This document shows positions 68 to 11,544 of a stretch of 11,603 nucleotides of DNA, one piece after another. The position numbers and the translations under genes were made by a program. Under the pieces are notes generated by a model. The model saw only the letters and a list, made by a program, of their open reading frames with translations, was not told the origin of the DNA and did no database searches. Positions within the stretch are counted from its first letter, which is position 1. Every line of letters begins with the position of its first letter. The DNA is from Planctomycetaceae bacterium (lineage in GTDB: Bacteria; Planctomycetota; MHYJ01; SBBU01). The stretch lies in NCBI GenBank assembly GCA_005239585.1, contig SBBU01000028.1, positions 1 through 11,603 of the forward strand, given 5' to 3'.

Positions 68-89
68 GCCAGAAAGGACAAATTTATTT

Positions 90-163
90 GGGCGAGTGGC
101 GGAATTGGTATACGCGGTGGTTTCAAAAACCACACTTTGAGGGTTCGATTCCCTCCTCGCCTA
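90..163 (+). tRNA. tRNA-Leu (anticodon CAA) with an unusually short variable loop
   Basis: The cloverleaf is complete. The acceptor stem is 90-96 with 156-162, seven pairs with a terminal G-U. The D stem is GCG 99-101 with CGC 113-115, around a GAATTGGTATA loop. The anticodon stem is 117-121 with 129-133, around loop TTCAAAA with anticodon CAA at 124-126. The T arm is GAGGG, TTCGATT, CCCTC (139-155). The discriminator is A163 and no CCA is encoded. The D arm (GCGGAATTGGTA...CGC), the CAA anticodon and A73 all say leucine, reading UUG codons. The variable region is only ACTTT (134-138), whereas bacterial tRNA-Leu is normally class II with a variable arm of ten or more bases. All other stems pair perfectly, so this may be a functional class I-like tRNA-Leu, a gene that has lost its arm, or an assembly deletion. 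Confidence 0.88.
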
Positions 164-238
164 AGACAGCAAAGTTATGACATTTCTTCTACAGGAAAAA
201 CAGCCATTGCATTGGTTTCATCAACATCATTGATTCGA

Positions 239-254: not shown

Positions 255-800
255 ATGAAGGTACTAATAACAGGATTTGAGCCATGGGGCAGGATAAAGC
301 AAAATCCCAGCGGAGAGGCGGTCAAGATACTATTGAAAAAACCTCCTAATAGAATAAAGCTTTGTGGAGAAGTACTTCCTACGGAATTCAAAGAGGCAGA
401 GAAGAAAATCATTGCGGCCGTCAAGAGGGAAAAACCGAATTTCCTCATAATGACAGGACTCGCCACAGGACGCAAAAAGATATCACTAGAGGCAATTGCT
501 CTTAATATAGACCACTCTGAATATCCAGACGATAGCGGTGAGAAACGCTGGCGAAAACCCATAAAAAAAGGACCAATAGTGCTGGAATCGCGTCTTCCTA
601 TTGATCGACTCTACCAAGTGCTTAAGCGAGCTCACCTGCCAGTTACAATTTCATATAATGCAGGCACATACATCTGTAACCACGTCCATTACGTAGCTCG
701 CTATCATTTTCCCAGCCTTGAAAGCGGATTCGTGCATCTCCCCCCAAGGCCAATGAACAAAATTGTAAAGGCCTTGCGATTGATAATTAATTCACTCTGA
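255..800 (+). CDS. pcp: Pyroglutamyl-peptidase I (peptidase family C15)
   Basis: Cytosolic cysteine peptidase that removes N-terminal pyroglutamate (5-oxoproline) from peptides. The 181-residue product opens with the family signature MKVLITGFEPWG. It keeps the Glu-Cys-His catalytic triad in recognisable blocks: E79 in GLATGRKKISLEAIALNI, C141 in NAGTYICNHVHY, and H161 in GFVHLPP. It is 20-30 residues shorter than typical members, mainly at the C-terminus and between blocks, but no catalytic block is missing. The start is fixed by the conserved N-terminus, although no Shine-Dalgarno site is visible. The last 14 bases overlap the 3' end of the convergent phhB gene, so there is no room for a terminator between them. 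The gene lies downstream of the tRNA on the same strand, but a shared transcript cannot be judged. Family assignment is firm; the peptide substrates in this organism are unknown. Confidence 0.93.
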   Translation: MKVLITGFEPWGRIKQNPSGEAVKILLKKPPNRIKLCGEVLPTEFKEAEKKIIAAVKREKPNFLIMTGLATGRKKISLEAIALNIDHSEYPDDSGEKRWRKPIKKGPIVLESRLPIDRLYQVLKRAHLPVTISYNAGTYICNHVHYVARYHFPSLESGFVHLPPRPMNKIVKALRLIINSL

Positions 801-1316: not shown

Positions 1317-1904
1317 ATGTCCGAACTAGACATCGAGGAAGGAAAGCTTATAAAACGCTGCCAATCAGGCGATCAAGTTGCATTTAAAAAACTCTTCGAA
1401 CGATATCAACAAAAGATCTACATTGCTTCATACAACATCCTCGGCGACCACGACATTGCAAGAGATGTCGTCCAAGAAACTTTTGTCCGAGTCTTCAAAA
1501 ACATAAAGAATTTCAACAGGGGAAAACACTTTTATACATGGCTATATCAGATCGCAATTAACGTCTCTATCGATTTTTTGAGAAAAAGAGCCCGCAACAG
1601 AGAAACGGGTGCAGATGTAACCATATATGACAAAGACACCAAGACACCAACTCGCTGCATCGTACTACAGGAAACAAAGGACAAGGTAAGGCAAATCATC
1701 AGTATGCTTCCTGATAAGTACAAAATCGTCCTAGCCTTGCGCGACATCCAGGGTCTCTCTTGCGAGGAGATTGCCGAGATTATTGGTTGTAAATCAATCA
1801 CCGCAAGATGGAGAATCTATCAGGCGCGTAAAATATTCAAAGCTCTATGGACTGACACCCAACCCGGCAATTCCAACACCCGTAAACCACGCACCATCCC
1901 ATGA
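1317..1904 (+). CDS. ECF-type RNA polymerase sigma factor (sigma70 family, group 4)
   Basis: Directs RNA polymerase to a specialised set of promoters. The 195-residue product has two sigma domains. Region 2 is at about residues 22-92, with DIARDVVQETFVRVFKNIKNF and FYTWLYQIAINVSIDFLRKR as the core-binding and -10-recognition helices. Region 4 is at about 118-176, with LPDKYKIVLALRDIQGLSCE and a helix-turn-helix ending ITARWRIYQARK. The basic linker and the missing regions 1 and 3 are typical of ECF factors. The frame stays open upstream to a TTG at 1239. I chose M at 1317 because GAGG (1304-1307) sits 9 bases before it and the promoter places the transcript start at about 1241. A stronger AAAGGAGG at 1283-1290 has no start codon at usable spacing. 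No anti-sigma factor is adjacent; instead the stop overlaps the ATG of a 27-codon ORF. The target regulon is unknown. Confidence 0.9.
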   Translation: MSELDIEEGKLIKRCQSGDQVAFKKLFERYQQKIYIASYNILGDHDIARDVVQETFVRVFKNIKNFNRGKHFYTWLYQIAINVSIDFLRKRARNRETGADVTIYDKDTKTPTRCIVLQETKDKVRQIISMLPDKYKIVLALRDIQGLSCEEIAEIIGCKSITARWRIYQARKIFKALWTDTQPGNSNTRKPRTIP

Positions 1905-1984
1905 AAGAGATGGCTTTAGTACAGCAAATCAGACTCATCCCTGGCCCCAAGACTAGAGCTTTCTGTATTGTGGAGGATAAATAA
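1901..1984 (+). CDS. Possible 27-residue peptide overlapping the sigma factor stop
   Basis: An ATG at 1901 overlaps the sigma factor TGA in the arrangement ATGA and opens a 27-codon frame ending in TAA at 1982-1984. The product begins MKEMALVQQIRLIPG and ends FCIVEDK, with no recognisable motif or membrane segment. It has no Shine-Dalgarno site of its own and could be translated only by coupling to the sigma gene. ECF sigma genes are often followed by a 4-bp-overlapping anti-sigma gene, but this peptide is far too short and does not resemble one. It may be chance. Confidence 0.2.
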   Translation: MKEMALVQQIRLIPGPKTRAFCIVEDK

Positions 1985-1994
1985 AAGAAGCTCT
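1955..1994. terminator. Weak inverted repeat between convergent genes
   Basis: AGAGCTT (1955-1961) and AAGCTCT (1988-1994) form a 7-bp inverted repeat around a 26-base loop, in the 157-bp gap between the sigma factor gene and the end of the lipid operon. On the minus strand the arm at 1988-1994 is followed by TCTTTTATTTAT, a T-rich run. A shared terminator for the two converging transcripts is possible, but the stem is short, the loop is long and the T-run lies inside the loop. Apart from the 27-codon ORF, nothing else convincing is seen in this gap. Confidence 0.2.
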
Positions 1995-2061
1995 TAAATA
2001 AAGCCGCAGGTAACAAGTAATCATCTAGTGTAACGGTGTCCGTCCCCTCCACTCGCAAGTC

Positions 2062-3957
2062 CTATGGCTTCCAACTCTTTTCAATCTCATTAGTAAAGAG
2101 TTCCGGGGAGATTGCATTAAATCGTACCCTTTCTTCTCTTGATGGATGGATATAAAGGAGTTTTCCATCAAGCAATGCCTCAACCGCTGTTCGTGCAATC
2201 TGAGCAGGAGATTCAAAACTATTACTATCCTGTCCCGTGTAATACCTTAAAGTCCGTCTACCAAGCTTTCGCCCAAGAGCACTCTCGATGTGTGGTGGCA
2301 CAATTGTTGTGACTGTTATTTTCCTGTGTTTTAATTCCCTTCCTAACGACTCTGATAGAGTCCAAAAGGCCGCCTTCGATGAGTAGTAAGCACTATAAAG
2401 AGGTAACCCTGCCCGTCCACCAGAAGAAACCACGTTCAATATCCCTCCAGGACCTCTTACCCACTTTGCTAGAAACACCTGAATAAACCTTGCTGGCGTA
2501 AAGAAATTAACTTGAAATATTTCTCGAAGCTTTTCCTCAGATATCTCAGTAAATGGGTCTACAATTCCCACTGCTGCATTATTAACAAGATAATCAAACT
2601 TTTCATTCACACCTTGAATGAATGACTCAATAGACTCTTTTTTAGATAAATCAACAACAGACCATGCTGAAGAATATTTGTGCGCGAGTTTGCGAAGAGT
2701 TGATTCATTTCTGCCTACAAGGTAAAGCTCATGCCCACGCGAGTTAAACTCTTCACAAAAAGCATTACCCAAAGTTCCCGTCGCACCTGTTATTAAAACC
2801 TTGGGTCTAATATTTGATCTGACATTTATACGTACAGCTCCACTTCTTGTAACAGACCCAACCACATTGAAGAACATTTCAATCTCATCTTCAGTATTAT
2901 AAAAATGAGGCGAAATTCTTATATAATTACCACGTATAGAGACATTTATCCTATTCTCTTCTAATCTTTGTCTTACCTCGTCAATCTTCCCAGGGAGGCA
3001 GAAGCTCAGAATTCCTGACCGTTGACTTGAAGGCTTTATTCCTAAAGATTCTAGGTGTTCAAGCTCAATCTCTTTCAAGCTTCTAACCCTACTGTAGATG
3101 TTTTCCATCCCAATCTCATCAAGTTCATCAAGAGAGGCTCTTATTCCGGCAAGCGCAACAAAGTCAGGCATACCCGCCTCGAAGCGACATGCTCCATATG
3201 CAAACTTTGGTTCTCTTTCTTCAAAGAAGCCAGGATTCTCAACACTCATCCATCCGGCACACGGTACATGAAGGTCTTCAATTAACTCCTTTCTAATAAA
3301 AAGAAATCCTGTTCCAGGGGGAGCAAGAAGCCACTTTTGACCGCCACAAGCCAAAAAATCAATAAAACAGTTTTTAACATCTAACTGCACTGCCCCAACC
3401 GCTTGCACACCATCGACGCAGAATAATATACCGTTCTCTCTACAAAAACGACCAATCTCTTCAAGCTCATAAAACCGGCCTGTAAGATAATCAACAGCAC
3501 TAAGCGATATCAGCCTTACATTTCCAAGACTTGATTTTTTTAAGGTCTCCAATAGCGGCATCCCTGAATCAATTTTCAACGTGATAGTCTCTACCCCTAA
3601 CGATCTAAGGTTTTTCCACACATAAAGATTCGAAGGAAATTCATCCTGCGGAACTATCACCGTATCGCCAGATCTCCATCTGATCGCGTTTGCAACAAGC
3701 CCAAGTCCAGATGACGTATTTTGTACATGTGTAATCTCATCTGCTGATGCACCAATAATGTCTGCAAAGAGTCTCCTACTTCTTTCCAGATGAGTTATCC
3801 ACTCTGTAAGATTTTTCTCCATTGGTTCGTGCATATGATTTACTGTCCTTAGCATAGCCTCGGCTGTTCTATGTGAGATAGGACCTGTTGAGGCATGGTT
3901 TAAAAATATGCGGTCTTCGGTTATGGGATATTGCTTTCTTATAGATTCTATGTCCAT
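2062..3957 (-). CDS. Fusion of class V aminotransferase-fold PLP enzyme and short-chain dehydrogenase
   Basis: Numbered from the upstream ATG at 3963, residues 1-370 are a class V PLP enzyme (the fold of cysteine desulfurases and isopenicillin N epimerase). It has N-terminal LNHASTGPIS, DEFPSN at about 107, the cofactor-binding D184 in VDGVQAVG, and the Schiff-base lysine K210 in GGQKW. Residues 387-633 are an NAD(P)-dependent short-chain dehydrogenase, with TGATGTLG (392-399) for dinucleotide binding, NNAA (461-464), and the catalytic S513, Y526 and K530 (YYSSK). Both halves look intact and one uninterrupted frame joins them. I prefer the ATG at 3957: GGAGG (3964-3968) is 6 bases from it but directly abuts the ATG at 3963. 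The gene follows the CDP-alcohol transferase almost without a gap and is last in the operon. A plausible but unproven role is making the amino or hydroxy alcohol used as a lipid headgroup. The substrate cannot be read from sequence. Confidence 0.9.
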   Translation of the reverse strand: MDIESIRKQYPITEDRIFLNHASTGPISHRTAEAMLRTVNHMHEPMEKNLTEWITHLERSRRLFADIIGASADEITHVQNTSSGLGLVANAIRWRSGDTVIVPQDEFPSNLYVWKNLRSLGVETITLKIDSGMPLLETLKKSSLGNVRLISLSAVDYLTGRFYELEEIGRFCRENGILFCVDGVQAVGAVQLDVKNCFIDFLACGGQKWLLAPPGTGFLFIRKELIEDLHVPCAGWMSVENPGFFEEREPKFAYGACRFEAGMPDFVALAGIRASLDELDEIGMENIYSRVRSLKEIELEHLESLGIKPSSQRSGILSFCLPGKIDEVRQRLEENRINVSIRGNYIRISPHFYNTEDEIEMFFNVVGSVTRSGAVRINVRSNIRPKVLITGATGTLGNAFCEEFNSRGHELYLVGRNESTLRKLAHKYSSAWSVVDLSKKESIESFIQGVNEKFDYLVNNAAVGIVDPFTEISEEKLREIFQVNFFTPARFIQVFLAKWVRGPGGILNVVSSGGRAGLPLYSAYYSSKAAFWTLSESLGRELKHRKITVTTIVPPHIESALGRKLGRRTLRYYTGQDSNSFESPAQIARTAVEALLDGKLLYIHPSREERVRFNAISPELFTNEIEKSWKP

Positions 3958-3959
3958 AA

Positions 3960-4565
3960 TCATCCTCCAAAATTCCTTTTAATCCGGATAAACGATGTCA
4001 AAAGTCCTCCAGCAAAAGTCCACCAGAGAAAAATATAGATAAAATCAATCATCCAGCCATTCAGTAAGGAGAGAAACTGCAAAATCGAGGAGATAATTAG
4101 AGCGGCAATCCGATCAGTCTGACCAACAGGCCCCACACTCTGAGTTGGTTTTCCAACAGTTAGACCAAGTAATCCAGAAAATGTCACAAGCCAACCAGCG
4201 GCAACGGCAAGCATACCAGGAAAAGCTCTTGCCGGTACAGAAAGCGCAATCGAGAGCATAAGGATGATGTCACACAACTCAGGTGCTATTCTATTGATCA
4301 GTTCGCCCTTAGCTGTTGATCTTGAAAAAGTGACAGCAACAAGCCCGTCAAGTGTCCCAAGTGTCATTCTAAGAATGATCAGAATAACCCCTGCAAAATA
4401 GAGCCATGGGATTTTCTCGGCAAAAAAGTATGCTGCTGCTGTAGCAATACCAACGGGGACAATAGACCAGCTTAGGAGATTCGGATCAGTTTTTTCAAAG
4501 AGCACAATTGCACCTTTGAGCACCTTCCTGTAGCCGTATTTCGCGTTATAAAGCCCAATATCCAT
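3960..4565 (-). CDS. CDP-alcohol phosphatidyltransferase family membrane protein (YnbA/YnjF type)
   Basis: Members of this family move a phosphatidyl group from CDP-diacylglycerol to an alcohol in the membrane. This 201-residue protein has about six hydrophobic segments. It carries part of the CDP-alcohol signature, LDGLVAV (72-78) with G87 and D99, and also GPVGQTDR (145-152), a block I associate with the YnbA/YnjF subgroup. The full family motif D..DG..AR........G...D...D is degenerate here. The first Asp is G70, the Arg is V78, the third Asp is N91 and the fourth, the expected catalytic base, is P95. The subgroup itself tolerates Asn at the first and third positions, so V78 and P95 are the striking changes. 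GGAG 7 bases before the ATG supports the start. The gene starts 3 bp after the methyltransferase stop and its stop overlaps the upstream ATG of the next gene. It is a true family member, but activity is uncertain. Confidence 0.87.
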   Translation of the reverse strand: MDIGLYNAKYGYRKVLKGAIVLFEKTDPNLLSWSIVPVGIATAAAYFFAEKIPWLYFAGVILIILRMTLGTLDGLVAVTFSRSTAKGELINRIAPELCDIILMLSIALSVPARAFPGMLAVAAGWLVTFSGLLGLTVGKPTQSVGPVGQTDRIAALIISSILQFLSLLNGWMIDFIYIFLWWTFAGGLLTSFIRIKRNFGG

Positions 4566-4568
4566 ACA

Positions 4569-5381
4569 TCATCTCCATTTTCTTGCAAGATCAACCGCAT
4601 AAAATCCCCACCTATCCTGAAGAGTATCTATCACTTCAAACCCTGCCTCCTCAAGCCACTGGTGAATCGTCCGACTCGATCGAATGGACAAACGTAGCGG
4701 TCCATGATCAAAGTGTGGAAAAACTGATGTGACCATTTTCATGTCTGTGTGCCACGTCTGTGTCGTAAGCACGAGGCAACCGCCAACCTGCAGAGTCTCA
4801 CTTAAAAGTCTTATAGAATATTTTGCTATAGAATCATCTGTGATCCATTCGTAGATTCCTGCGGCAACAATCACATTTGGCCTCGGACTTGAGGAAAGAA
4901 GTTCCTCTCTGTTCAGTGCATCACCTGTTTCAAATCTGATGTCAAGACCTTGCAGATCTGCCTCCTTCTTCGCTTCCTCCAGCCAACGAACATCCATGTC
5001 TCTACATATTGTATGAACATGCTTGTTCTTAAATTCTGATATTGTCTCAATCATATAAGAAGCAGTTCCACATGCTATGTCCAGCACAGAGGCCCCGTTG
5101 CTATCTAATAACCTATCAGAGATAGCTCGCTTTAAAAGTATCTTGATGTTTCTCTTGCGAACACGTATAGATTCCCAACCTTCATGATTAAGGTAGAATC
5201 TATCAATCCATCTTCCAATCAGTAGCCATCCTGAAGGATTATTTTTATAAATGTAATCAAGAACCTTTCCTGAAGTAAGACCATGACGCAGTGTCAGGCT
5301 GATACCTGTACCAAGTCTCCCAAGACTGTGAATAAAACACTTTATCAAAAATATATTTACACTGCTGAGAATCGCTCTCAT
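4569..5381 (-). CDS. SAM-dependent methyltransferase, Methyltransf_20 type (like the C-terminal half of YnbC)
   Basis: The 270-residue product has a class I SAM-binding core with motif I VLDIACGTASY (99-109), CRDMD (126-130), a motif-II-like GDALNREE (153-160), and PRPNVIVAAGIYEWI (167-180). The order RFYLNHEGWESIRVRKRN, RD.D, GDAL, PRP, GIYE, QTWH, WGFY matches the methyltransferase half of E. coli YnbC as I recall it. In YnbC that half is fused behind an alpha/beta hydrolase (lysophospholipase-like) domain. Here the hydrolase is absent and only a hydrophobic N-terminal helix precedes it. AGGAG 6 bases before the ATG sets the start, which overlaps the acyltransferase stop as ATGA. The substrate is unknown for the family; the context suggests a lipid or lipid headgroup. 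Confidence 0.88.
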   Translation of the reverse strand: MRAILSSVNIFLIKCFIHSLGRLGTGISLTLRHGLTSGKVLDYIYKNNPSGWLLIGRWIDRFYLNHEGWESIRVRKRNIKILLKRAISDRLLDSNGASVLDIACGTASYMIETISEFKNKHVHTICRDMDVRWLEEAKKEADLQGLDIRFETGDALNREELLSSSPRPNVIVAAGIYEWITDDSIAKYSIRLLSETLQVGGCLVLTTQTWHTDMKMVTSVFPHFDHGPLRLSIRSSRTIHQWLEEAGFEVIDTLQDRWGFYAVDLARKWR

Positions 5382-6082
5382 AATCTTCTCCTAATTAAAA
5401 TTATGGCCTCCCTTAGATTATCAGTGAAATCGCGATAAGGATTTTCTTTTAAAGGATTCACATAAGCCATCATTGGTTTACCAAAATAAACAGTGATTCT
5501 TTCAGATTTTGGAACATAATTATTTTTTGGGAGGCTTGCATATGTGCCATTTAAACAGACTGGGACAATAGGTACTTTTGCCCGATGTGAAAGTACTGAT
5601 ACGCCACTGTGAAATCTTGCGATCTCCCCTGTTATGGACCTTGTACCCTCTGGATAAAAGATGAGACTATTACCCTTTGAAAGCTCCTTAGAGCATAATT
5701 CAAGGCTTTCCTCGTCAAAATGAGACCTGTCAAATGGGATCACATTAGCTAAAAGATGACTCAACGCCAACAGTCGCCTATTCTTAAAAAAATAATCTCT
5801 TGCTGCAACAGCGCGAATAGAATTTATCCTGAAGATTGGAACACCGCAAAAAATTGCAAGAGTATCAAGATGACTAGAATGGTTTGCCGCAAAGATAATA
5901 CCCTTTGAGCTGTTAAAGGGTGCTCTTCCAAATCTCCTAAAACCATGATAAGAAATAAAAAAGAATCTGATTAACACGTATACAGCAATTCTAATCATCT
6001 TGATGAATGTATTATCTTTGACTCTCTCATAATCTAGCGCAACAGATTCGGACCTGTTTTGTTTAAGCGACAAAACCTTCAA
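5378..6082 (-). CDS. 1-acyl-glycerol-phosphate acyltransferase family protein (PlsC-like)
   Basis: Transfers an acyl chain to a lysophospholipid-type acceptor, usually giving phosphatidic acid, at the inner membrane. The 234-residue protein has a hydrophobic anchor at about 29-46 and the family blocks: NHSSHLD (67-73, the H..D catalytic pair), AARDYFF (93-99), FYPEGTRS (142-149, acceptor phosphate binding) and VPIVPVCLNGTY (170-181). Its product would be the substrate of the cytidylyltransferase encoded just upstream. The start is a TTG that overlaps the upstream stop by 4 bp (TTGA). It has no clear Shine-Dalgarno site, so translation probably depends on coupling. An ATG 28 codons later would remove part of the N-terminus and also lacks a ribosome site. 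An alternative substrate, such as a non-glycerol backbone, cannot be excluded. Confidence 0.92.
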   Translation of the reverse strand: MKVLSLKQNRSESVALDYERVKDNTFIKMIRIAVYVLIRFFFISYHGFRRFGRAPFNSSKGIIFAANHSSHLDTLAIFCGVPIFRINSIRAVAARDYFFKNRRLLALSHLLANVIPFDRSHFDEESLELCSKELSKGNSLIFYPEGTRSITGEIARFHSGVSVLSHRAKVPIVPVCLNGTYASLPKNNYVPKSERITVYFGKPMMAYVNPLKENPYRDFTDNLREAIILIRRRL

Positions 6083-7047
6083 AGGACACCATAAAAATAG
6101 TTAGTAAGAAGCAAGAAGATCGGAGCTGTAAAAGCAATACTATTTATCCTGTCCGTTATCCCTCCGTGTCCTGGGATAACGTTTGCAAGATCCTTGACTC
6201 CGAGATCGCGCTTTATGAATGACAGAATAAGATCACCACACAGCCCTCCAACGGAAAGAACATATGAGATGAGGACAACAAACTCGATTGCGAAATCTGG
6301 AATAAGTATCCTGTGAAGCATCAATCCAAGAACGATGCAAAGTGCTACAGCGCCAAGCGCTCCCTCACAAGTCTTATTTGGACTAAGTTGTGGTATTAAT
6401 TTGTGCCTGCCTATTAAGCTTCCCACCATGTATGCCATAGCGTCATTAACGGCAACAAGAATAAGGAAGAATGAGGCATAGAGAATCCCATTTGATGAGT
6501 TTCTCATCAAAGCAAAATATGAGACAAACCATCCGAAATAAATAATTCCAAATATCGCCATGCTGCACTTTACGCCCATTCCTTTGTAGTCTCGTCGAAA
6601 GATTGGAACGAGCAATACGCTCAAAACTGCACAAAGTGGCATTAGCTGATGAATTTCATAACAAGAAGCAATAACAGTGAGGAATACAAATCCGATTGCC
6701 ATAAAAGATACACAAAGAAGAAGCAAGTCTTTTGATATCCCTGTAGCACGAGCATATTCTAAGAATCCTAATACTGAGATAAGAAAGATCACTATTTGAA
6801 ATGTTATCCTGTCAAAGATTGACCCAAAAATCAGAGGCACCATAATGTACCACATGCCGTATTTGACCCAGACAGATCTGGCATCAAGTCCTCTTCGCTT
6901 CTGGATAAAACTCATAATTGCTACAACAATAGAGGATGATAGAAGAATTGCCCCTGCTGTGGTAATGCTGATACTAAATTGAACATCCTGAGGTACTGAA
7001 CTCGAGAAGATTCCTTGAGTCATGACAAGATTTATCGCAAAAAGCAT
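6079..7047 (-). CDS. Phosphatidate cytidylyltransferase (CdsA family, YnbB-like)
   Basis: Converts phosphatidic acid and CTP to CDP-diacylglycerol in the membrane. The 322-residue product has multiple hydrophobic segments and the CdsA blocks: ND (201-202) in VNDAMAYMVG, SPNKTCEG (222-229), and the signature SFIKRDLGVKD...IPGHGGITDRIN (276-302). The signature normally ends in Asp (DR-hydrophobic-D), but position 302 is Asn (AAT, one transition from GAT). The tail DRINSIAFTAPIF closely resembles E. coli YnbB as I remember it, and YnbB has Asp there. It is the first gene of a five-gene operon and is followed by the acyltransferase with a 4-bp overlap. A perfect extended -10 (TGTTATAAT) lies 14 bp upstream and no Shine-Dalgarno site is seen, so the transcript leader is probably very short. 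An ATG at residue 9 is an alternative start. Confidence 0.92.
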   Translation of the reverse strand: MLFAINLVMTQGIFSSSVPQDVQFSISITTAGAILLSSSIVVAIMSFIQKRRGLDARSVWVKYGMWYIMVPLIFGSIFDRITFQIVIFLISVLGFLEYARATGISKDLLLLCVSFMAIGFVFLTVIASCYEIHQLMPLCAVLSVLLVPIFRRDYKGMGVKCSMAIFGIIYFGWFVSYFALMRNSSNGILYASFFLILVAVNDAMAYMVGSLIGRHKLIPQLSPNKTCEGALGAVALCIVLGLMLHRILIPDFAIEFVVLISYVLSVGGLCGDLILSFIKRDLGVKDLANVIPGHGGITDRINSIAFTAPIFLLLTNYFYGVL

Positions 7048-7060
7048 GCCAATTCAGTGC

Positions 7061-7069
7061 ATTATAACA
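7061..7069 (-). promoter_or_regulatory. Extended -10 promoter element for the lipid operon
   Basis: On the minus strand TGTTATAAT is a perfect extended -10 (TGnTATAAT). No convincing -35 lies upstream, which extended -10 promoters can do without. The predicted start at about 7054 leaves a leader of about 7 bases before the first operon gene. Confidence 0.55.
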
Positions 7070-7130
7070 CGCTATATTACAGGGGGTTATAAAACGTCCT
7101 TGAAACTCACCTAGATTGATACTTTTCTGC

Positions 7131-7145
7131 AGGTATTTTTTACCT
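7131..7145. promoter_or_regulatory. 15-bp palindrome in the divergent region, possible operator
   Basis: AGGTA, TTTTT, TACCT is a perfect inverted repeat with a 5-base spacer, placed between the lipid operon promoter and the uvrA promoter. A direct repeat ATTGATAC also occurs at 7115-7122 and 7166-7173, the second overlapping the uvrA -35. A repressor site serving one or both promoters is possible. The sequence matches neither the E. coli nor the Gram-positive LexA box. Confidence 0.25.
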
Positions 7146-7166
7146 ACACAAAGCTCTTTTTGTTAA

Positions 7167-7195
7167 TTGATACACTTGGATATAAAGGATATCAT
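7167..7195 (+). promoter_or_regulatory. Sigma70-type promoter for uvrA
   Basis: TTGATA (7167-7172) and TATCAT (7190-7195) are separated by exactly 17 bp, each one mismatch from consensus. The predicted start at about 7202 gives a leader of about 19 bases, with no Shine-Dalgarno site before the uvrA ATG. Confidence 0.55.
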
Positions 7196-7220
7196 TATAC
7201 TTGCCGTATTTTAAAAACTC

Positions 7221-10058
7221 ATGGAAAATAGATACATATCCATAAAAGGGGCCAAGGAGCATAACCTAAAGAATGTCGATATTGAGATCCCTCGAAATAA
7301 GTTGGTTGTGATCACTGGGCTTAGCGGATCGGGCAAGTCATCCATCGCATTCGACACTATCTATGCCGAAGGGCAAAGGCGCTATGTCGAGTCGCTTTCA
7401 GCATATGCCAGGCAGTTCCTTGAGCAGATGCAAAAGCCAGATGTAGAATCGATTGAAGGGTTGCCGCCAACAATCTCGATTGAACAGCGAACAGGGCACA
7501 CAACACCCCGCTCAACTGTCGCAACATCAACAGAAATCTATGATTATCTCAGACTCTTATTTGCGCGGATAGGCAAGCCATTTTGCTACAAGTGTTCAAG
7601 GGAAATTGCCCAACAGACACCTCAGCAGATTATTGAAAAGCTGATGCAGCTTCCTCCTGGGACTAAACTCATGCTCCTTGCGCCGGCAATACGAGGCAAA
7701 AAGGGATTTCACAGAGATGTGCTCGACAAGATCAAAAAACAGGGGTTCGTCAGGGTCAGAGTTAATGGGAAACTCATGGAGATAAAAGAAGTCCCGCCAC
7801 TTGATCGCAATAAGAAACACGACATTGATATTGTGGTAGACAGACTAATCATCTCGCCTGAGGTAAAACCTAGACTATCAGATTCAGTTGAAACCACTCT
7901 AAAAGGTGGTGAAGGTCTCTTGGTCGCTGTATGGGATGAGAATTCAAAAACACATGAGAAACTTTACAGTCAGCTTTATGCATGCCCATACTGCAACATT
8001 AGTCTTGGCGAGATTCAACCGAGACTCTTCTCATTCAACAGCCCTTACGGGGCATGCCAGACATGCGATGGCCTCGGCGCAAAGCTTGAGCTCGATGAGG
8101 AGCTTATAGTCCACAACACAAAACTGTCGCTGAAGGAAGGGGCTATCGAGGCATGGATGAAACTAGGCCACAGAATGGCCACGCGTTACATGTACAAACT
8201 GCGAGAATTTTGTACGTGGTTCAATACACCATTCAGCCAGCAATACGAAAAAATCCCTGAAGACAAGAAGAAAATCCTGCTTTACGGTACAACGAAAGAT
8301 GATGAATCAAAGTATGGATACTACTTTGAAGGCGTAATCCCAAACCTGATCCGTCGATTTGAGAACAGTGAAAGCGAGTTTGTGAAACGACGAATCCTCA
8401 ATTTCATGAATGAAAAGGCATGCACCAACTGCAAGGGTACGCGATTAAGACCTGAGGCTATGTCAATAAAGATCGCTGACAAGAATATACATCAAGTCAC
8501 ATTAATGACCGTTGAGCACGCACTCAAGTTCTTCGAGGAGCTGAATTTATACAAAGAGGAAAAGCATATCGCACGCCTTGTACTTAAAGAGATAAAAAGC
8601 AGGCTCAAATTTCTCTGCGACGTTGGTCTATCCTACCTCACACTTGATCGCAAAAGCGATACGCTTGCAGGAGGTGAGGCACAAAGGATACGCCTTGCCT
8701 CACAGCTTGGCTCAGGGCTTGTTGGTGTTTGTTATGTCCTGGACGAACCAACCATAGGCCTCCATCAGCGTGACAATAGGAGGCTCCTCGATACACTTGT
8801 AAGCCTTAGGAATATGGGAAACTCTGTGATAGTAGTAGAGCACGATGAAGATACAATAAGGTCTGCTGATCATGTAATCGACATGGGGCCGGGCGCCGGT
8901 TCTCATGGAGGTCTAGTCGTTGCGCAAGGCAGGATCGAAGAGATTATCGTTAATAAAAATTCCATGACAGGCATGTATTTGACAGGAGAGAAACAGATCG
9001 ATGTGCCAAGAAAGAGACGTCCCGTTGATCTGGCGAGGTCGGTAGAAGTCAGAGGTGCAAAAGAACATAATCTGAAGGATATAAATGTCAGATTTCCACT
9101 GGGAGTCTTTACAGTAGTAACAGGAGTCTCTGGCTCAGGCAAGTCCTCACTAGTCCATGACATACTCTACAAAGGTCTAAGAAGAACGATCCATAGCTCA
9201 AAAGAAAAGGCTGGGGATCACGATGGAATTTTAGGCTACAATCTAGTAGATCTGATAACAATCATCGATCAAACACCAATTGGGAGGACACCCCGCTCAA
9301 ATGCCGCCACTTACACAGGTGTATTCGACGAGGTACGAAATCTCTACTGCATGACCAAAGAGTCCCGCACTCGGGGCTATCTTCCCGGGAGATTTAGCTT
9401 TAACGTTAGAGGCGGCAGATGCGAGTCATGTAAGGGTCAGGGAGTCAAGATCATAGAAATGCACTTTTTACCAGATATTTATGTAACCTGCGAGGAATGC
9501 AAGGGTAAAAGATACAATCGAGAGACGCTTGAGATACTTTACAAAGGAAAATCAATCGCAGACATCCTTCAGACGTCAGTAGAAGAGTCCTTGCAGTTCT
9601 TCTCGAATTTTCCAAAGATCATATCAATGTTGAAAACACTCGATGATGTCGGCCTCGGCTACATCGCCCTCGGCCAGCCCAGCACAACACTCTCGGGAGG
9701 AGAGGCGCAAAGGATCAAGCTTTCAAGCGAACTTGGCCGGACCCACTCGGGCCACACCTTGTACATTCTTGACGAGCCCACAACAGGCCTTCATTTCCAC
9801 GATATTAAGAAGCTTCTAGAGGTGCTGAATCGCTTGGTAGACCTCGGAAATACAGTGGTCTGCATCGAGCACAACATGCATGTTATCAAAACAGCTGATT
9901 ACATAATCGATCTTGGCCCAGAGGGCGGCGAAGCAGGAGGTCAAGTAGTGATGACAGGTACCCCAGAACAAATCGTAACATGCACAAACTCACACACAGG
10001 ACAGATACTAACTGATTACATAAACAAACAGGCAACTAGAATAAACATCACAACATAG
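7221..10058 (+). CDS. uvrA: UvrABC excision nuclease subunit A
   Basis: ATP-dependent damage-recognition subunit of nucleotide excision repair; it works as a dimer that scans DNA and loads UvrB. The 945-residue product is full length. Half 1 has Walker A GLSGSGKS (33-40), a zinc site C255-C258/C279-C282, an ABC signature LAGGEAQR (482-489) and Walker B VLDEP with D508-E509. Half 2 has Walker A GVSGSGKS (635-642), a zinc site C734-C737/C757-C760, signature LSGGEAQR (824-831) and Walker B ILDEP with D851-E852. The only deviation is Ala for Ser in the first signature. The start is fixed by the conserved N-terminus ([14 protein letters not shown]), although no ribosome site is visible. The gene is divergent from the lipid operon, and the HEAT-repeat gene begins 34 bp after its stop, so the two may be co-transcribed. 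No recognisable SOS box precedes it. Confidence 0.98.
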
Positions 10059-10092: not shown

Positions 10093-11544
10093 ATGGGCAT
10101 GTTTGGCATATTTCTCACTGCCTTGGTCCTAGTGACATACAACTTTCAGCAAGAGCCTACAAAAGAGCAAGTACAAGAATTGATCAGAACTTTAAATGAT
10201 GACGATCCGCAGCTACGGGATGTTGCAACAAAACAATTAAGCGAATTGTGGGAGAAAGAGGATGTAATCAAACTTGTAGAACAAGAACTCGCAAAGTCTA
10301 AAGGCCGGAATGAGGAGGTTTTTCAGCGCTGCCAGAAAATTCTCAATCTAATAAACTTTCAACGGATGTTGGAAAAGGAAATTGTGGCAGATATAGGCCA
10401 ACAAAAAATACTTGAGCTATATGATTCGGATGAAGCTGTCATCCTATCATTCTTTCAGAAATTGATAGGTGATCAGTCGCTCAAGACCAAATATCGTCTA
10501 ACCGATCAGTCCAAACTAGGGACCATCTCACGCTGGGTAGCAAACCGCCTGCAATCCACTGACACAAAGAAAACCTTTCTCATGTTCTTGACTATCCCAT
10601 ACCCTATGAAACTTGAAAATGCAGAGGGATGTGCCGACGGTGTTGTGCTGCTCCTAAATGATCAATCTAAGGATATAAGGCTTCAGGCCGTGACAGCACT
10701 CGGCCAGCTCGGTGCAAAACGGTACGCAAAAGAGATTGCTGAGAGGCTAAAAGACAAGGATCCATCCGTAGTAAACAGTGCAGTCTCTACACTGAGTAAA
10801 CTAGACGCAAGGGAATACGCCAACGATATTGCAAAACTGTTGGGAACTTTAAAAACTACTGCAAAGGCAGTGATTATCAATGTCCTGGCAAACTTTGACT
10901 CTAAAGAGCACGCCAAAGATATAGCCTTATGTTTAAAAGACCCAGATCTTACAGTTCGCTCCTCGGCAATATCTGCCCTTGCTAAACTGTCTGCCAAGGA
11001 TTACGCCAAGGATATAGCCAAATTTCTAAAAGATGTTAACCCTGAGATCAGGGCAAATGCAATCCTTGCCCTTGGCAACCTCGACGCAAAGGAATTCGCC
11101 AATGATATCACAGCACTTTTATCAGATGTCGTAGAATCTCACATGTATGAACCCGAAGGAATCAAAATTCCAAAACCAGTTGCCGCTATCGCAGCCAAAA
11201 CCCTGGCGCAATTAAAGGTAAAAGATGTTGCCAAGGCACTTGCCGAGTCACTCAAGATCGAAAACAATGCTATAAGAAGCTCCAGCTTAGAGGCACTTGT
11301 TGAGTTGGACGCTAAAGAATATATCAAAGAGATCGTCCCTTTACTGAATCAGAAAGATCAGCAGCCTGATAAGTATTACTGGATGCTTACACCTGTAAGA
11401 GGTCAAGCTGCACTTGCCCTTGGAGCACTCAAGGCAACAGAATACGCCAAAGATGTGGCAGGCCTCCTAAAAGATAATAACCCAACTGTGCGTAGCCTTG
11501 CAGCCGTAACCGTTACAAAGTGTGTGGGGTGCGGGTGGACATAA
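10093..11544 (+). CDS. HEAT-repeat protein, possibly exported
   Basis: The 483-residue product begins with a hydrophobic stretch (MFGIFLTALVLVTYNF), which could be a signal peptide or anchor but lacks the usual basic n-region. Residues 24-87 look like a divergent HEAT-type pair (LNDDDPQLRDVATKQLSEL). From about residue 180 there are nine tandem units of about 31 residues. Their pattern is YAKDIA..LKD..P.VR followed by A..AL..L.AKE, typical of HEAT repeats of the PBS-lyase type, which form protein-binding superhelices. Units 6 and 8 carry insertions. The ninth breaks off after AAVTVTK and the protein ends CVGCGWT, unlike the other units, so the C-terminus may be truncated or replaced. No ribosome site is visible. 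The gene follows uvrA closely on the same strand. Function is unknown beyond likely protein binding. Confidence 0.85.
   Translation: MGMFGIFLTALVLVTYNFQQEPTKEQVQELIRTLNDDDPQLRDVATKQLSELWEKEDVIKLVEQELAKSKGRNEEVFQRCQKILNLINFQRMLEKEIVADIGQQKILELYDSDEAVILSFFQKLIGDQSLKTKYRLTDQSKLGTISRWVANRLQSTDTKKTFLMFLTIPYPMKLENAEGCADGVVLLLNDQSKDIRLQAVTALGQLGAKRYAKEIAERLKDKDPSVVNSAVSTLSKLDAREYANDIAKLLGTLKTTAKAVIINVLANFDSKEHAKDIALCLKDPDLTVRSSAISALAKLSAKDYAKDIAKFLKDVNPEIRANAILALGNLDAKEFANDITALLSDVVESHMYEPEGIKIPKPVAAIAAKTLAQLKVKDVAKALAESLKIENNAIRSSSLEALVELDAKEYIKEIVPLLNQKDQQPDKYYWMLTPVRGQAALALGALKATEYAKDVAGLLKDNNPTVRSLAAVTVTKCVGCGWT

What the first reader, a model, noticed from the sequence alone, without database searches (positions are those of the whole stretch)
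2062..7047. Five-gene lipid operon built on a YnbABC-like core plus an acyltransferase and a PLP-SDR fusion
The order CdsA-type, PlsC-type, Methyltransf_20, CDP-alcohol transferase, PLP/SDR fusion is tightly coupled (4-bp overlaps at three junctions counting the upstream ATG of the last gene, and a 3-bp gap at the fourth). Three members match E. coli ynbB, ynbC (methyltransferase half) and ynbA, a locus whose product is, to my knowledge, not established. Known family chemistry suggests a dedicated route: acylate, activate with CTP, make an alcohol headgroup by PLP and reductase steps, attach it, and methylate. This would be a second lipid pathway distinct from housekeeping phospholipid synthesis, perhaps giving an N- or O-methylated headgroup lipid. 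The pathway is inference; the gene families and coupling are seen.
Basis: partly seen in the sequence, partly recalled or inferred. Interest (0 to 1): 0.75.

Follow-up and report, generated by a model that had tools for sequence, protein, structure and literature searches.

The report
Accessory lipid operon with odd transferase
A contig, most likely from a planctomycete, carries five tightly packed lipid-enzyme genes that recur in the same order in two relatives of chlamydia and look like an extra membrane-lipid pathway of unknown product, in which the supposed head-group transferase lacks the residues such enzymes normally use.

Summary
In detail: five coupled minus-strand genes (7047-2062), CdsA, PlsC, Methyltransf_20, CDP-alcohol-transferase fold, class V PLP-SDR fusion. 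The host is most likely a planctomycete. The same five-gene order occurs in 2 of 232 Chlamydiota genomes. In those 232, the window's transferase subfamily and the PLP-SDR fusion occur in the same 8 genomes, adjacent in all 8. These keep other CDP-alcohol transferases and acyltransferases (8 of 8) and another CdsA (6 of 6 tested), so the operon is accessory there; the window's own genome is not held.

Two corrections. PlsC is not an addition: 17 of 20 pseudomonadotal Ynb-type loci carry one. And the transferase has the fold but not the catalytic signature: D1, R, D3 and D4 (the base) are replaced in 120 of 120 listed homologues, so the 'attach the head group' step cannot be assumed. The SDR keeps its catalytic lysine only in the three operons known to carry the methyltransferase. 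Best reading: a variant, in planctomycete and Chlamydiota genomes, of the Ynb/Arc1 accessory lipid pathway, product unknown.

The parts
6079..7047 (-). CdsA/YnbB-like CDP-diacylglycerol synthase paralogue (322 aa); C-terminal CdsA signature region looks intact by eye (GDLILSFIKRDLGVKDLANVIPGHGGITDR; motif recalled)
   Evidence: PF01148 5e-53; 35-37% to the CdsA of the two five-gene relatives
5378..6082 (-). PlsC-type acyltransferase (234 aa, TTG start); HX4D (NHSSHLD) and EGTRS motifs by eye (motifs recalled)
   Evidence: PF01553 1.2e-17; 4-bp overlap with CdsA
4569..5381 (-). Methyltransf_20 methyltransferase (270 aa), relative of the C-terminal half of E. coli YnbC
   Evidence: PF12147 2e-54; 42-43% to the relatives in G064 and G183, the only 2 of 232 Chlamydiota genomes with a PF12147 match better than 7.6e-6
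3960..4565 (-). CDP-alcohol phosphotransferase fold protein (201 aa) of a YnbA-related subfamily with a replaced catalytic signature: G70..D73-G..A77-V78........G87...N91...P95-E96..D99, then GPVGQTDR (145-152); the cytidine-site motif PNxxS (28-32) is kept
   Evidence: fold; invariant columns; signature count; roles of the residues: PMC4634129
2062..3963 (-). fusion of a class V (fold type I) PLP enzyme (about residues 1-372 of the 631-aa form; PLP lysine K208 and R347 kept, catalytic-cysteine loop of SufS absent) and an SDR (about 385-631; S511, Y524, K528 kept)
   Evidence: PF00266, PF00106; alignment A3 and alignment to 5b7s and SufS; Foldseek best match cysteine desulfurase 5b7u E 4.4e-28 (model pLDDT 76.5, with segments 231-263 and 558-581 under 50)

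Best explanation
The five genes are an accessory phospholipid pathway, a variant of the Ynb/Arc1-type lipid cluster found so far in a planctomycete-like contig and in Chlamydiota. Shown: gene families, coupling, the same order in the window and two Chlamydiota genomes, complete co-occurrence of transferase subfamily and PLP-SDR fusion in the Chlamydiota genomes searched, separate housekeeping genes in those relatives, and loss of the canonical catalytic signature in the transferase. Inferred: PlsC and the CdsA paralogue supply a dedicated pool of CDP-lipid; the PLP domain acts on a carboxylated amino acid (not as a cysteine desulfurase) and the SDR reduces its carbonyl product; the YnbA-type protein binds CDP-lipid through its kept cytidine site and either transfers the lipid-phosphate with a rearranged active site (N91, E96, D99, R152) or is a non-catalytic partner; the methyltransferase caps the product. 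The product would be a minor, perhaps attack- or stress-related, methylated amino-acid-derived lipid rather than a bulk membrane lipid.
For: Same five-gene order with overlapping or near-touching junctions in G064 and G183. Transferase subfamily in 8 of 232 Chlamydiota genomes and two-domain fusion matches in the same 8 of 232 (G097 is cut by a contig end), adjacent in all 8. Strong PF12147 only in the 2 five-gene genomes of 232. Other PF01066 genes at E <= 5.8e-27 in 8 of 8, other PF01553 genes in 8 of 8, a further CdsA in 6 of 6 tested. Transferase fold and signature loss. PLP: catalytic-cysteine loop missing, lysine and arginine kept. Fusion PLP domains in one clade, window branching first. 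Ynb/Arc1 relatives: YnbB overproduction raises MPIase but cannot replace CdsA (PMC6362211, passages); arc1A helps resist T6SS lipases (PMC12663445, passages).
Against: No product, substrate or phenotype is known. Two Chlamydiota genomes (G039, G216) carry the PLP half alone, without SDR and without lipid genes on the stretches seen (18 kb and 3.2 kb), so it can serve elsewhere. Five of the eight operon genomes have no strong methyltransferase match genome-wide and SDRs without the catalytic lysine (G097 is cut short; genomes may be incomplete), so the scheme does not hold for the whole family. The ynbB knock-out did not significantly change MPIase (PMC6362211) and arc1A's role looked auxiliary (PMC12663445). 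That arc1A is a YnbA is recalled annotation plus a matching layout, not a sequence test. Outside Chlamydiota and the window, neighbours of the listed transferase relatives (150 with E <= 0.001) could not be seen.
Confidence: 0.5

Rival explanations
1. One reading: a classical CDP-alcohol phosphatidyltransferase attaches a head group made by the PLP and SDR domains to CDP-DAG, and the methyltransferase methylates it.
For: Gene families and coupling; PLP and SDR active-site residues present in the window protein; CDP-alcohol phosphotransferase fold.
Against: D1, R, D3 and D4 of the signature are replaced in 120 of 120 listed homologues; in a characterised enzyme even D4 to N nearly abolishes activity (PMC4634129). 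Relatives without the SDR lysine and without the methyltransferase keep the transferase.
Confidence: 0.2
2. Membrane repair or lipase defence, as for P. aeruginosa Arc1: the operon rebuilds or modifies lysophospholipids after attack, with PlsC re-acylating and the rest marking or recycling the lipid.
For: arc1 (PA2541-36) protects against T6SS attack (PMC8926400) and arc1A against lipases (PMC12663445); six-gene layout YnbA, hydrolase-methyltransferase, PAP2/phosphatase, small protein, PlsC, CdsA in L093; in Chlamydiota loci L001 and L024 PlsC is fused to AMP-binding and carrier domains, an Aas-like layout.
Against: The window lacks the hydrolase and phosphatase genes; Arc1 kinship is inferred; no regulation data. 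Known Chlamydiota are intracellular (general knowledge), where T6SS attack by rivals is less expected.
Confidence: 0.2
3. Housekeeping phospholipid genes of the host that simply lie together.
For: The window genome is not held, so its other copies cannot be counted.
Against: All 8 operon-bearing Chlamydiota have other PF01066 and PF01553 genes, and 6 of 6 tested another CdsA; 224 of 232 Chlamydiota show no member of the subfamily; E. coli YnbB cannot replace CdsA (PMC6362211, data not shown there).
Confidence: 0.06

Closest known systems
E. coli ynbABC(D), chromosomal and plasmid copies
   Same: CdsA paralogue, YnbA-type protein, Methyltransf_20 domain; the plasmid copy also has a PlsC
   Different: YnbA-type sites have N at D1 (25 of 25 read) and at D3 (24 of 25) but keep D4 (25 of 25), with R in 20, I in 3 and K in 2 (the pattern allowed only these); ynbC carries a fused hydrolase, ynbD is a phosphatase; no tblastn match to the window's PLP or SDR half in 20 of 20 pseudomonadotal loci, though a Moraxella plasmid cluster has a separate SDR
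P. aeruginosa arc1A-F (PA2541-36), antagonism resistance cluster 1
   Same: Ynb-type layout in pseudomonadotal relatives; gene identities of PA2541, PA2537 and PA2536 are recalled
   Different: in such layouts no PLP-SDR, but hydrolase and phosphatase genes; Gac/Rsm-regulated (PMC8926400)
Variant in six other Chlamydiota genomes (G001, G002, G003, G035, G097, G219): CdsA divergent, transferase, PLP-SDR; a long PlsC-bearing protein follows where the contig is long enough (3 of 3)
   Same: same transferase subfamily, same fusion, CdsA and PlsC
   Different: no strong Methyltransf_20 match in the genome, SDR lysine lost in the 5 that could be read, PlsC fused to AMP-binding and phosphopantetheine domains in the 2 scanned
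CDP-alcohol phosphotransferases (AF2299 4o6n, IPCT-DIPPS 4mnd, PIP synthase 5d92)
   Same: fold; cytidine-site motif P(D/N)xx(T/S)
   Different: catalytic signature residues D1, R, D3, D4 missing
Class V PLP enzymes: T. onnurineus cysteine desulfurase 5b7s, SufS, cystine lyase C-DES 1elq
   Same: fold type I class V, PLP lysine and arginine
   Different: catalytic-cysteine loop of 5b7s/SufS absent; fused to an SDR

Membership tests
CDP-alcohol phosphotransferases (class I CDP-AP) | CDP-AP fold | tested here: met
   AlphaFold2 model pLDDT 88.7; Foldseek ranks 1-27 are CDP-AP
CDP-alcohol phosphotransferases (class I CDP-AP) | signature D1xxD2GxxAR..GxxxD3xxxD4 | tested here: not met
   D1, R, D3, D4 replaced in 120 of 120 listed homologues (D2 and the two G were required by the search pattern, A, G or S at the A position)
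[quoted passage not shown]
   needs an assay
Ynb/Arc1-type lipid cluster | YnbA-family protein beside a CdsA paralogue | tested here: met
   the YnbA relation is remote: 22% identity to E. coli YnbA, BLAST E down to 7.6e-12 with pseudomonadotal YnbA, shared N at D3 and a G-P-x-G-x-x-D-R-like stretch
Ynb/Arc1-type lipid cluster | Methyltransf_20 beside it | tested here: met
   12 of 20 pseudomonadotal loci have it too
Ynb/Arc1-type lipid cluster | alpha/beta hydrolase (fused or separate) and PAP2/dual-specificity phosphatase | tested here: not met
   neither is in the window; a separate hydrolase precedes CdsA in L023
Cysteine desulfurase (SufS/IscS) | PLP lysine | tested here: met
   K208, invariant in 10 of 10 fusions
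Cysteine desulfurase (SufS/IscS) | catalytic cysteine loop | tested here: not met
   loop absent in the alignment with SufS and 5b7s
SDR oxidoreductase | Rossmann domain with Ser-Tyr-Lys catalytic residues (recalled) | tested here: met
   PF00106; window S511, Y524, K528; the lysine is kept in 3 of 10 fusions only
Housekeeping cdsA/plsC | only copies in the genome | tested here: inconclusive
   not so in Chlamydiota relatives; window genome not held

The most novel reading that the evidence does not exclude
A new lipid-modifying system in which a CDP-alcohol-phosphotransferase fold has been rebuilt (loss of metal ligands and base, gain of the conserved N-R-x-x-P-E-x-x-D set) to do a different reaction on CDP-lipids, paired with a PLP-SDR enzyme that delivers an amino-acid-derived nucleophile or modifies the lipid directly, giving a lipid class not yet described.
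Probability: 0.2. Interest if true: 0.82.

Novelty: new variant of a known kind. Interest (0 to 1): 0.55.

Why it matters
Ynb-type clusters are widespread and, as Arc1, help survive lipase attack, yet the listings of my searches showed no paper that gives their product. This operon gives a handle: a subfamily whose transferase has lost the textbook active site and is paired with one PLP-SDR enzyme in every Chlamydiota genome found to hold it. If the transferase is active, that is a new chemistry for a textbook lipid-enzyme fold; if not, these clusters use the fold as a binding partner. Either result would make the open question of what ynbABC makes testable.

Tried and rejected
Cysteine desulfurase reading of the PLP domain: rejected, catalytic-cysteine loop absent. 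Serine-palmitoyltransferase-like (sphingoid base) reading of a PLP plus SDR plus acyl-carrier context: considered for the Chlamydiota variant, but the PLP domain's best Pfam family is class V (PF00266), with PF00155 only weak in some fusions; not pursued. Class V PLP beside SDR on plasmids: the three looked at (Sulfitobacter S223 and S190, Ensifer; 22-27% identity) have no lipid genes of this kind nearby. Viral-contig scans with the fusion and the transferase found no relative. The equal contig length (13378) of P0110 and P0239 suggested a linked standalone PLP; nothing more supports it. Promoter and terminator scans of 1900-7300 gave no more than shuffles. The genome-contig scan also returned seven loci (L004-L010) with the PLP half only; the neighbours of six were looked at by eye and no lipid cluster was seen.

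Limits of counts; one query (AMPL_chl) was cut out of frame and held a stop, so its silence means nothing; the 20 loci are 20 of the 22 best-scoring places (44 genomes with a match), G540 and G631 being passed over without a recorded reason. One search scored only 7998 candidates, so its four fusions are a lower bound. One search scored 5 candidates per genome and its tail was not shown. One search used patterns that fix D2 and both glycines, and for YnbA allowed only R, K or I after A; 2 of its 27 YnbA loci (L081, L088) gave no match. Completeness of the searched genomes was not reported, so absences are provisional. The PLP trees used every fourth of the listed standalone relatives (29 rows).
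Full report
What is there. Pfam names CdsA (PF01148, 5e-53), PlsC (PF01553, 1.2e-17), Methyltransf_20 (PF12147, 2e-54) and the class V PLP (PF00266) plus SDR (PF00106) fusion. The fourth protein has no Pfam match at 1e-3; an AlphaFold2 model (pLDDT 88.7) matches CDP-alcohol phosphotransferases in the PDB, and 7 of its 8 Chlamydiota relatives score weakly against PF01066, so it is a remote member by fold.

Host. Of the 120 listed best UvrA matches, the 16 whose name gives an organism are all planctomycetes, at 60-66% identity; the best match (79%) is unnamed. The window's own genome is not held.

Conservation of the order. The one genome-contig scan with the fusion found it whole in three Chlamydiota MAGs (L001-L003) and its PLP half alone in seven other loci. 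A profile of the transferase subfamily (A2) searched against 232 Chlamydiota genomes found 15 with a match: 8 at E below 1e-80, and 7 at E 2e-8 or worse that are ordinary transferases with the full D..DG..AR..G...D...D motif. All 8 have the PLP-SDR fusion immediately downstream. A CdsA gene is divergent beside the transferase in 6 and three genes upstream in the same operon in 2. The reverse search with the fusion profile (A3) listed matches over both domains in the same 8 of 232 and in no other (in G097 the contig ends inside the SDR; the list's weak tail was not shown). In G064 and G183 the order is CdsA, PlsC, methyltransferase, transferase, PLP-SDR, as in the window (L023: 5577-6530, 6527-7165, 7162-7959, 7962-8564, 8551-10515; L063: 329-1273, 1270-1983, 1976-2776, 2777-3382, 3369-5318), with an alpha/beta hydrolase gene before CdsA in L023 (Pfam) and, by eye only, the tail of one in L063. 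A strong PF12147 match (E below 1e-60) occurs in these 2 of 232 genomes; 16 more match only at 7.6e-6 or worse, 5 of them over the family cut-off.

Not housekeeping, in relatives. All 8 operon genomes have another PF01066 protein at E 5.8e-27 or better and 3-4 PF01553 proteins each, the operon's own counted where it is on a held contig. The 6 tested for PF01148 have a further CdsA, in G002 as two pieces (G183 and G219 were not tested). For the window itself this is untested.

Kinship to Ynb/Arc1. In 398 Pseudomonadota genomes A2 found 44 with a match, none better than 5.4e-21. In 20 loci taken from them, 17 have CdsA and 17 PlsC, 12 the hydrolase and methyltransferase, and none showed a match to the window's PLP or SDR half by tblastn at 1e-4. 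An E. coli plasmid has YnbA, CdsA, PlsC and hydrolase-methyltransferase; E. coli K-12 has ynbABCD without PlsC beside it; a Moraxella plasmid cluster has a separate SDR gene. So PlsC belongs to the usual set, an SDR can turn up, and the PLP-SDR fusion is the novelty. PMC8926400 (abstract, sections 5 and 13, and passages) names PA2541-36 arc1A-F, a Gac/Rsm-controlled cluster that protects against T6SS attack, without finding which effector. PMC12663445 (passages) finds arc1A contributes to resistance against lipase effectors, in an auxiliary role beside arc3A. That PA2541 is a YnbA and PA2536 a CdsA is recalled; the six-gene layout of L093 and the MIS start of the YnbA proteins in L077-L079, which fits the PA2541 deletion primer printed in PMC8926400 as I read it by eye, are consistent. 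PMC6362211 (passages): YnbB overproduction raises MPIase, its knock-out does not change MPIase significantly, and it cannot replace CdsA.

The transferase active site. PMC4634129 (passages) describes the CDP-AP signature D1xxD2GxxAR..GxxxD3xxxD4: the first three aspartates hold a metal, D4 is the likely base, and D4 to N nearly abolishes activity. Among the 120 listed homologues of the window protein, itself included and selected by similarity to it, D1 is G 88, A 24, S 7, T 1; R is V 58, E 29, T 20, Q 7, I 3, A 2, M 1; D3 is N 119, H 1; D4 is P 117, A 2, H 1; E follows D4 in 120 and D stands at D4+4 in 120. In 25 YnbA-type sites found in 27 loci, D1 is N in 25, D3 is N in 24 and T in 1, D4 is kept in 25. 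The cytidine-site motif P(D/N)xx(T/S) of that paper is kept (PNLLS; P28 and S32 invariant in A2). So the fold and probably the nucleotide site remain while the known catalytic set is gone; the listed homologues cited in A2 keep 41-56% identity to the window, so the protein is not decaying.

The PLP-SDR fusion. The PLP half matches 5b7s, SufS and C-DES; the lysine K208 and R347 are kept, the catalytic-cysteine loop is absent. In a tree with 29 sampled standalone relatives the 10 fusions form one clade (support 100), the window branching first. With two standalone Chlamydiota proteins added (L100 from G039, L101 from G216), these nest inside the clade, so most simply the SDR half was lost twice; both genomes lack the transferase subfamily and show no lipid cluster on the 18 kb and 3.2 kb seen. 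The SDR lysine is present in the window, L023 and L063 and replaced by N, H or Y in the other 7 of 10 fusions. The three that keep it are the three known to carry the methyltransferase; the neighbours of two of the seven (P0002, P0003) are unknown, and on the tree this may be a single joint loss, so it is suggestive, not proof, that reductase and methyltransferase work together.

Mechanism and limits. I commit to an accessory CDP-lipid pathway with an amino-acid-derived, reduced and methylated group, but the joining step is open: a rebuilt active site or a partner role. Nothing found here gives the product. PMC8429429 was looked at (passages) and concerns pssA and pgsA only; the other papers were seen as listings.

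Noticed in passing
L075 6122-6727, L018, L019, L020, L076-L095: The YnbA family as a whole departs from the CDP-alcohol phosphotransferase signature: asparagine at D1 (25 of 25 sites read) and at D3 (24 of 25), with D4 kept.
   Followed up: partly
L100 7983-9083 and L101 1469-2611: Standalone class V PLP proteins that nest inside the PLP-SDR fusion clade, in Chlamydiota genomes without the transferase subfamily; no lipid genes on the stretches seen.
   Followed up: partly
L001 3752-6145, L024 12479-14815, L026 5796-8285: AMP-binding, phosphopantetheine and PlsC domains fused in one protein, downstream of the PLP-SDR fusion (L001, L024) or of a plain ynbA-cdsA pair (L026) in Chlamydiota; Aas-like in layout.
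   Followed up: partly
L018 4631-7786: A ynbA-cdsA-plsC-methyltransferase cluster lies next to a nif gene cluster on a Pseudanabaena plasmid.
   Followed up: no
L022 6191-7819: A Methyltransf_20 protein on a Kosakonia plasmid stands beside ketosynthase, carrier protein, MaoC and FabG genes; no ynbA or cdsA match in the 14.8 kb.
   Followed up: no
L097 6510-8977: On an Ensifer plasmid a RidA gene precedes a separate class V PLP gene and an SDR gene, hinting at an enamine-forming PLP enzyme paired with a reductase.
   Followed up: no
window 89-164: tRNA-Leu (CAA) gene.
   Followed up: yes
window 255-800, 787-1128, 1239-1904, 7221-10058, 10093-11544: Flanking genes: pyroglutamyl peptidase-like protein, pterin-4a-carbinolamine dehydratase, ECF sigma factor, UvrA (divergent from the operon) and a HEAT-repeat protein.
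   Followed up: partly
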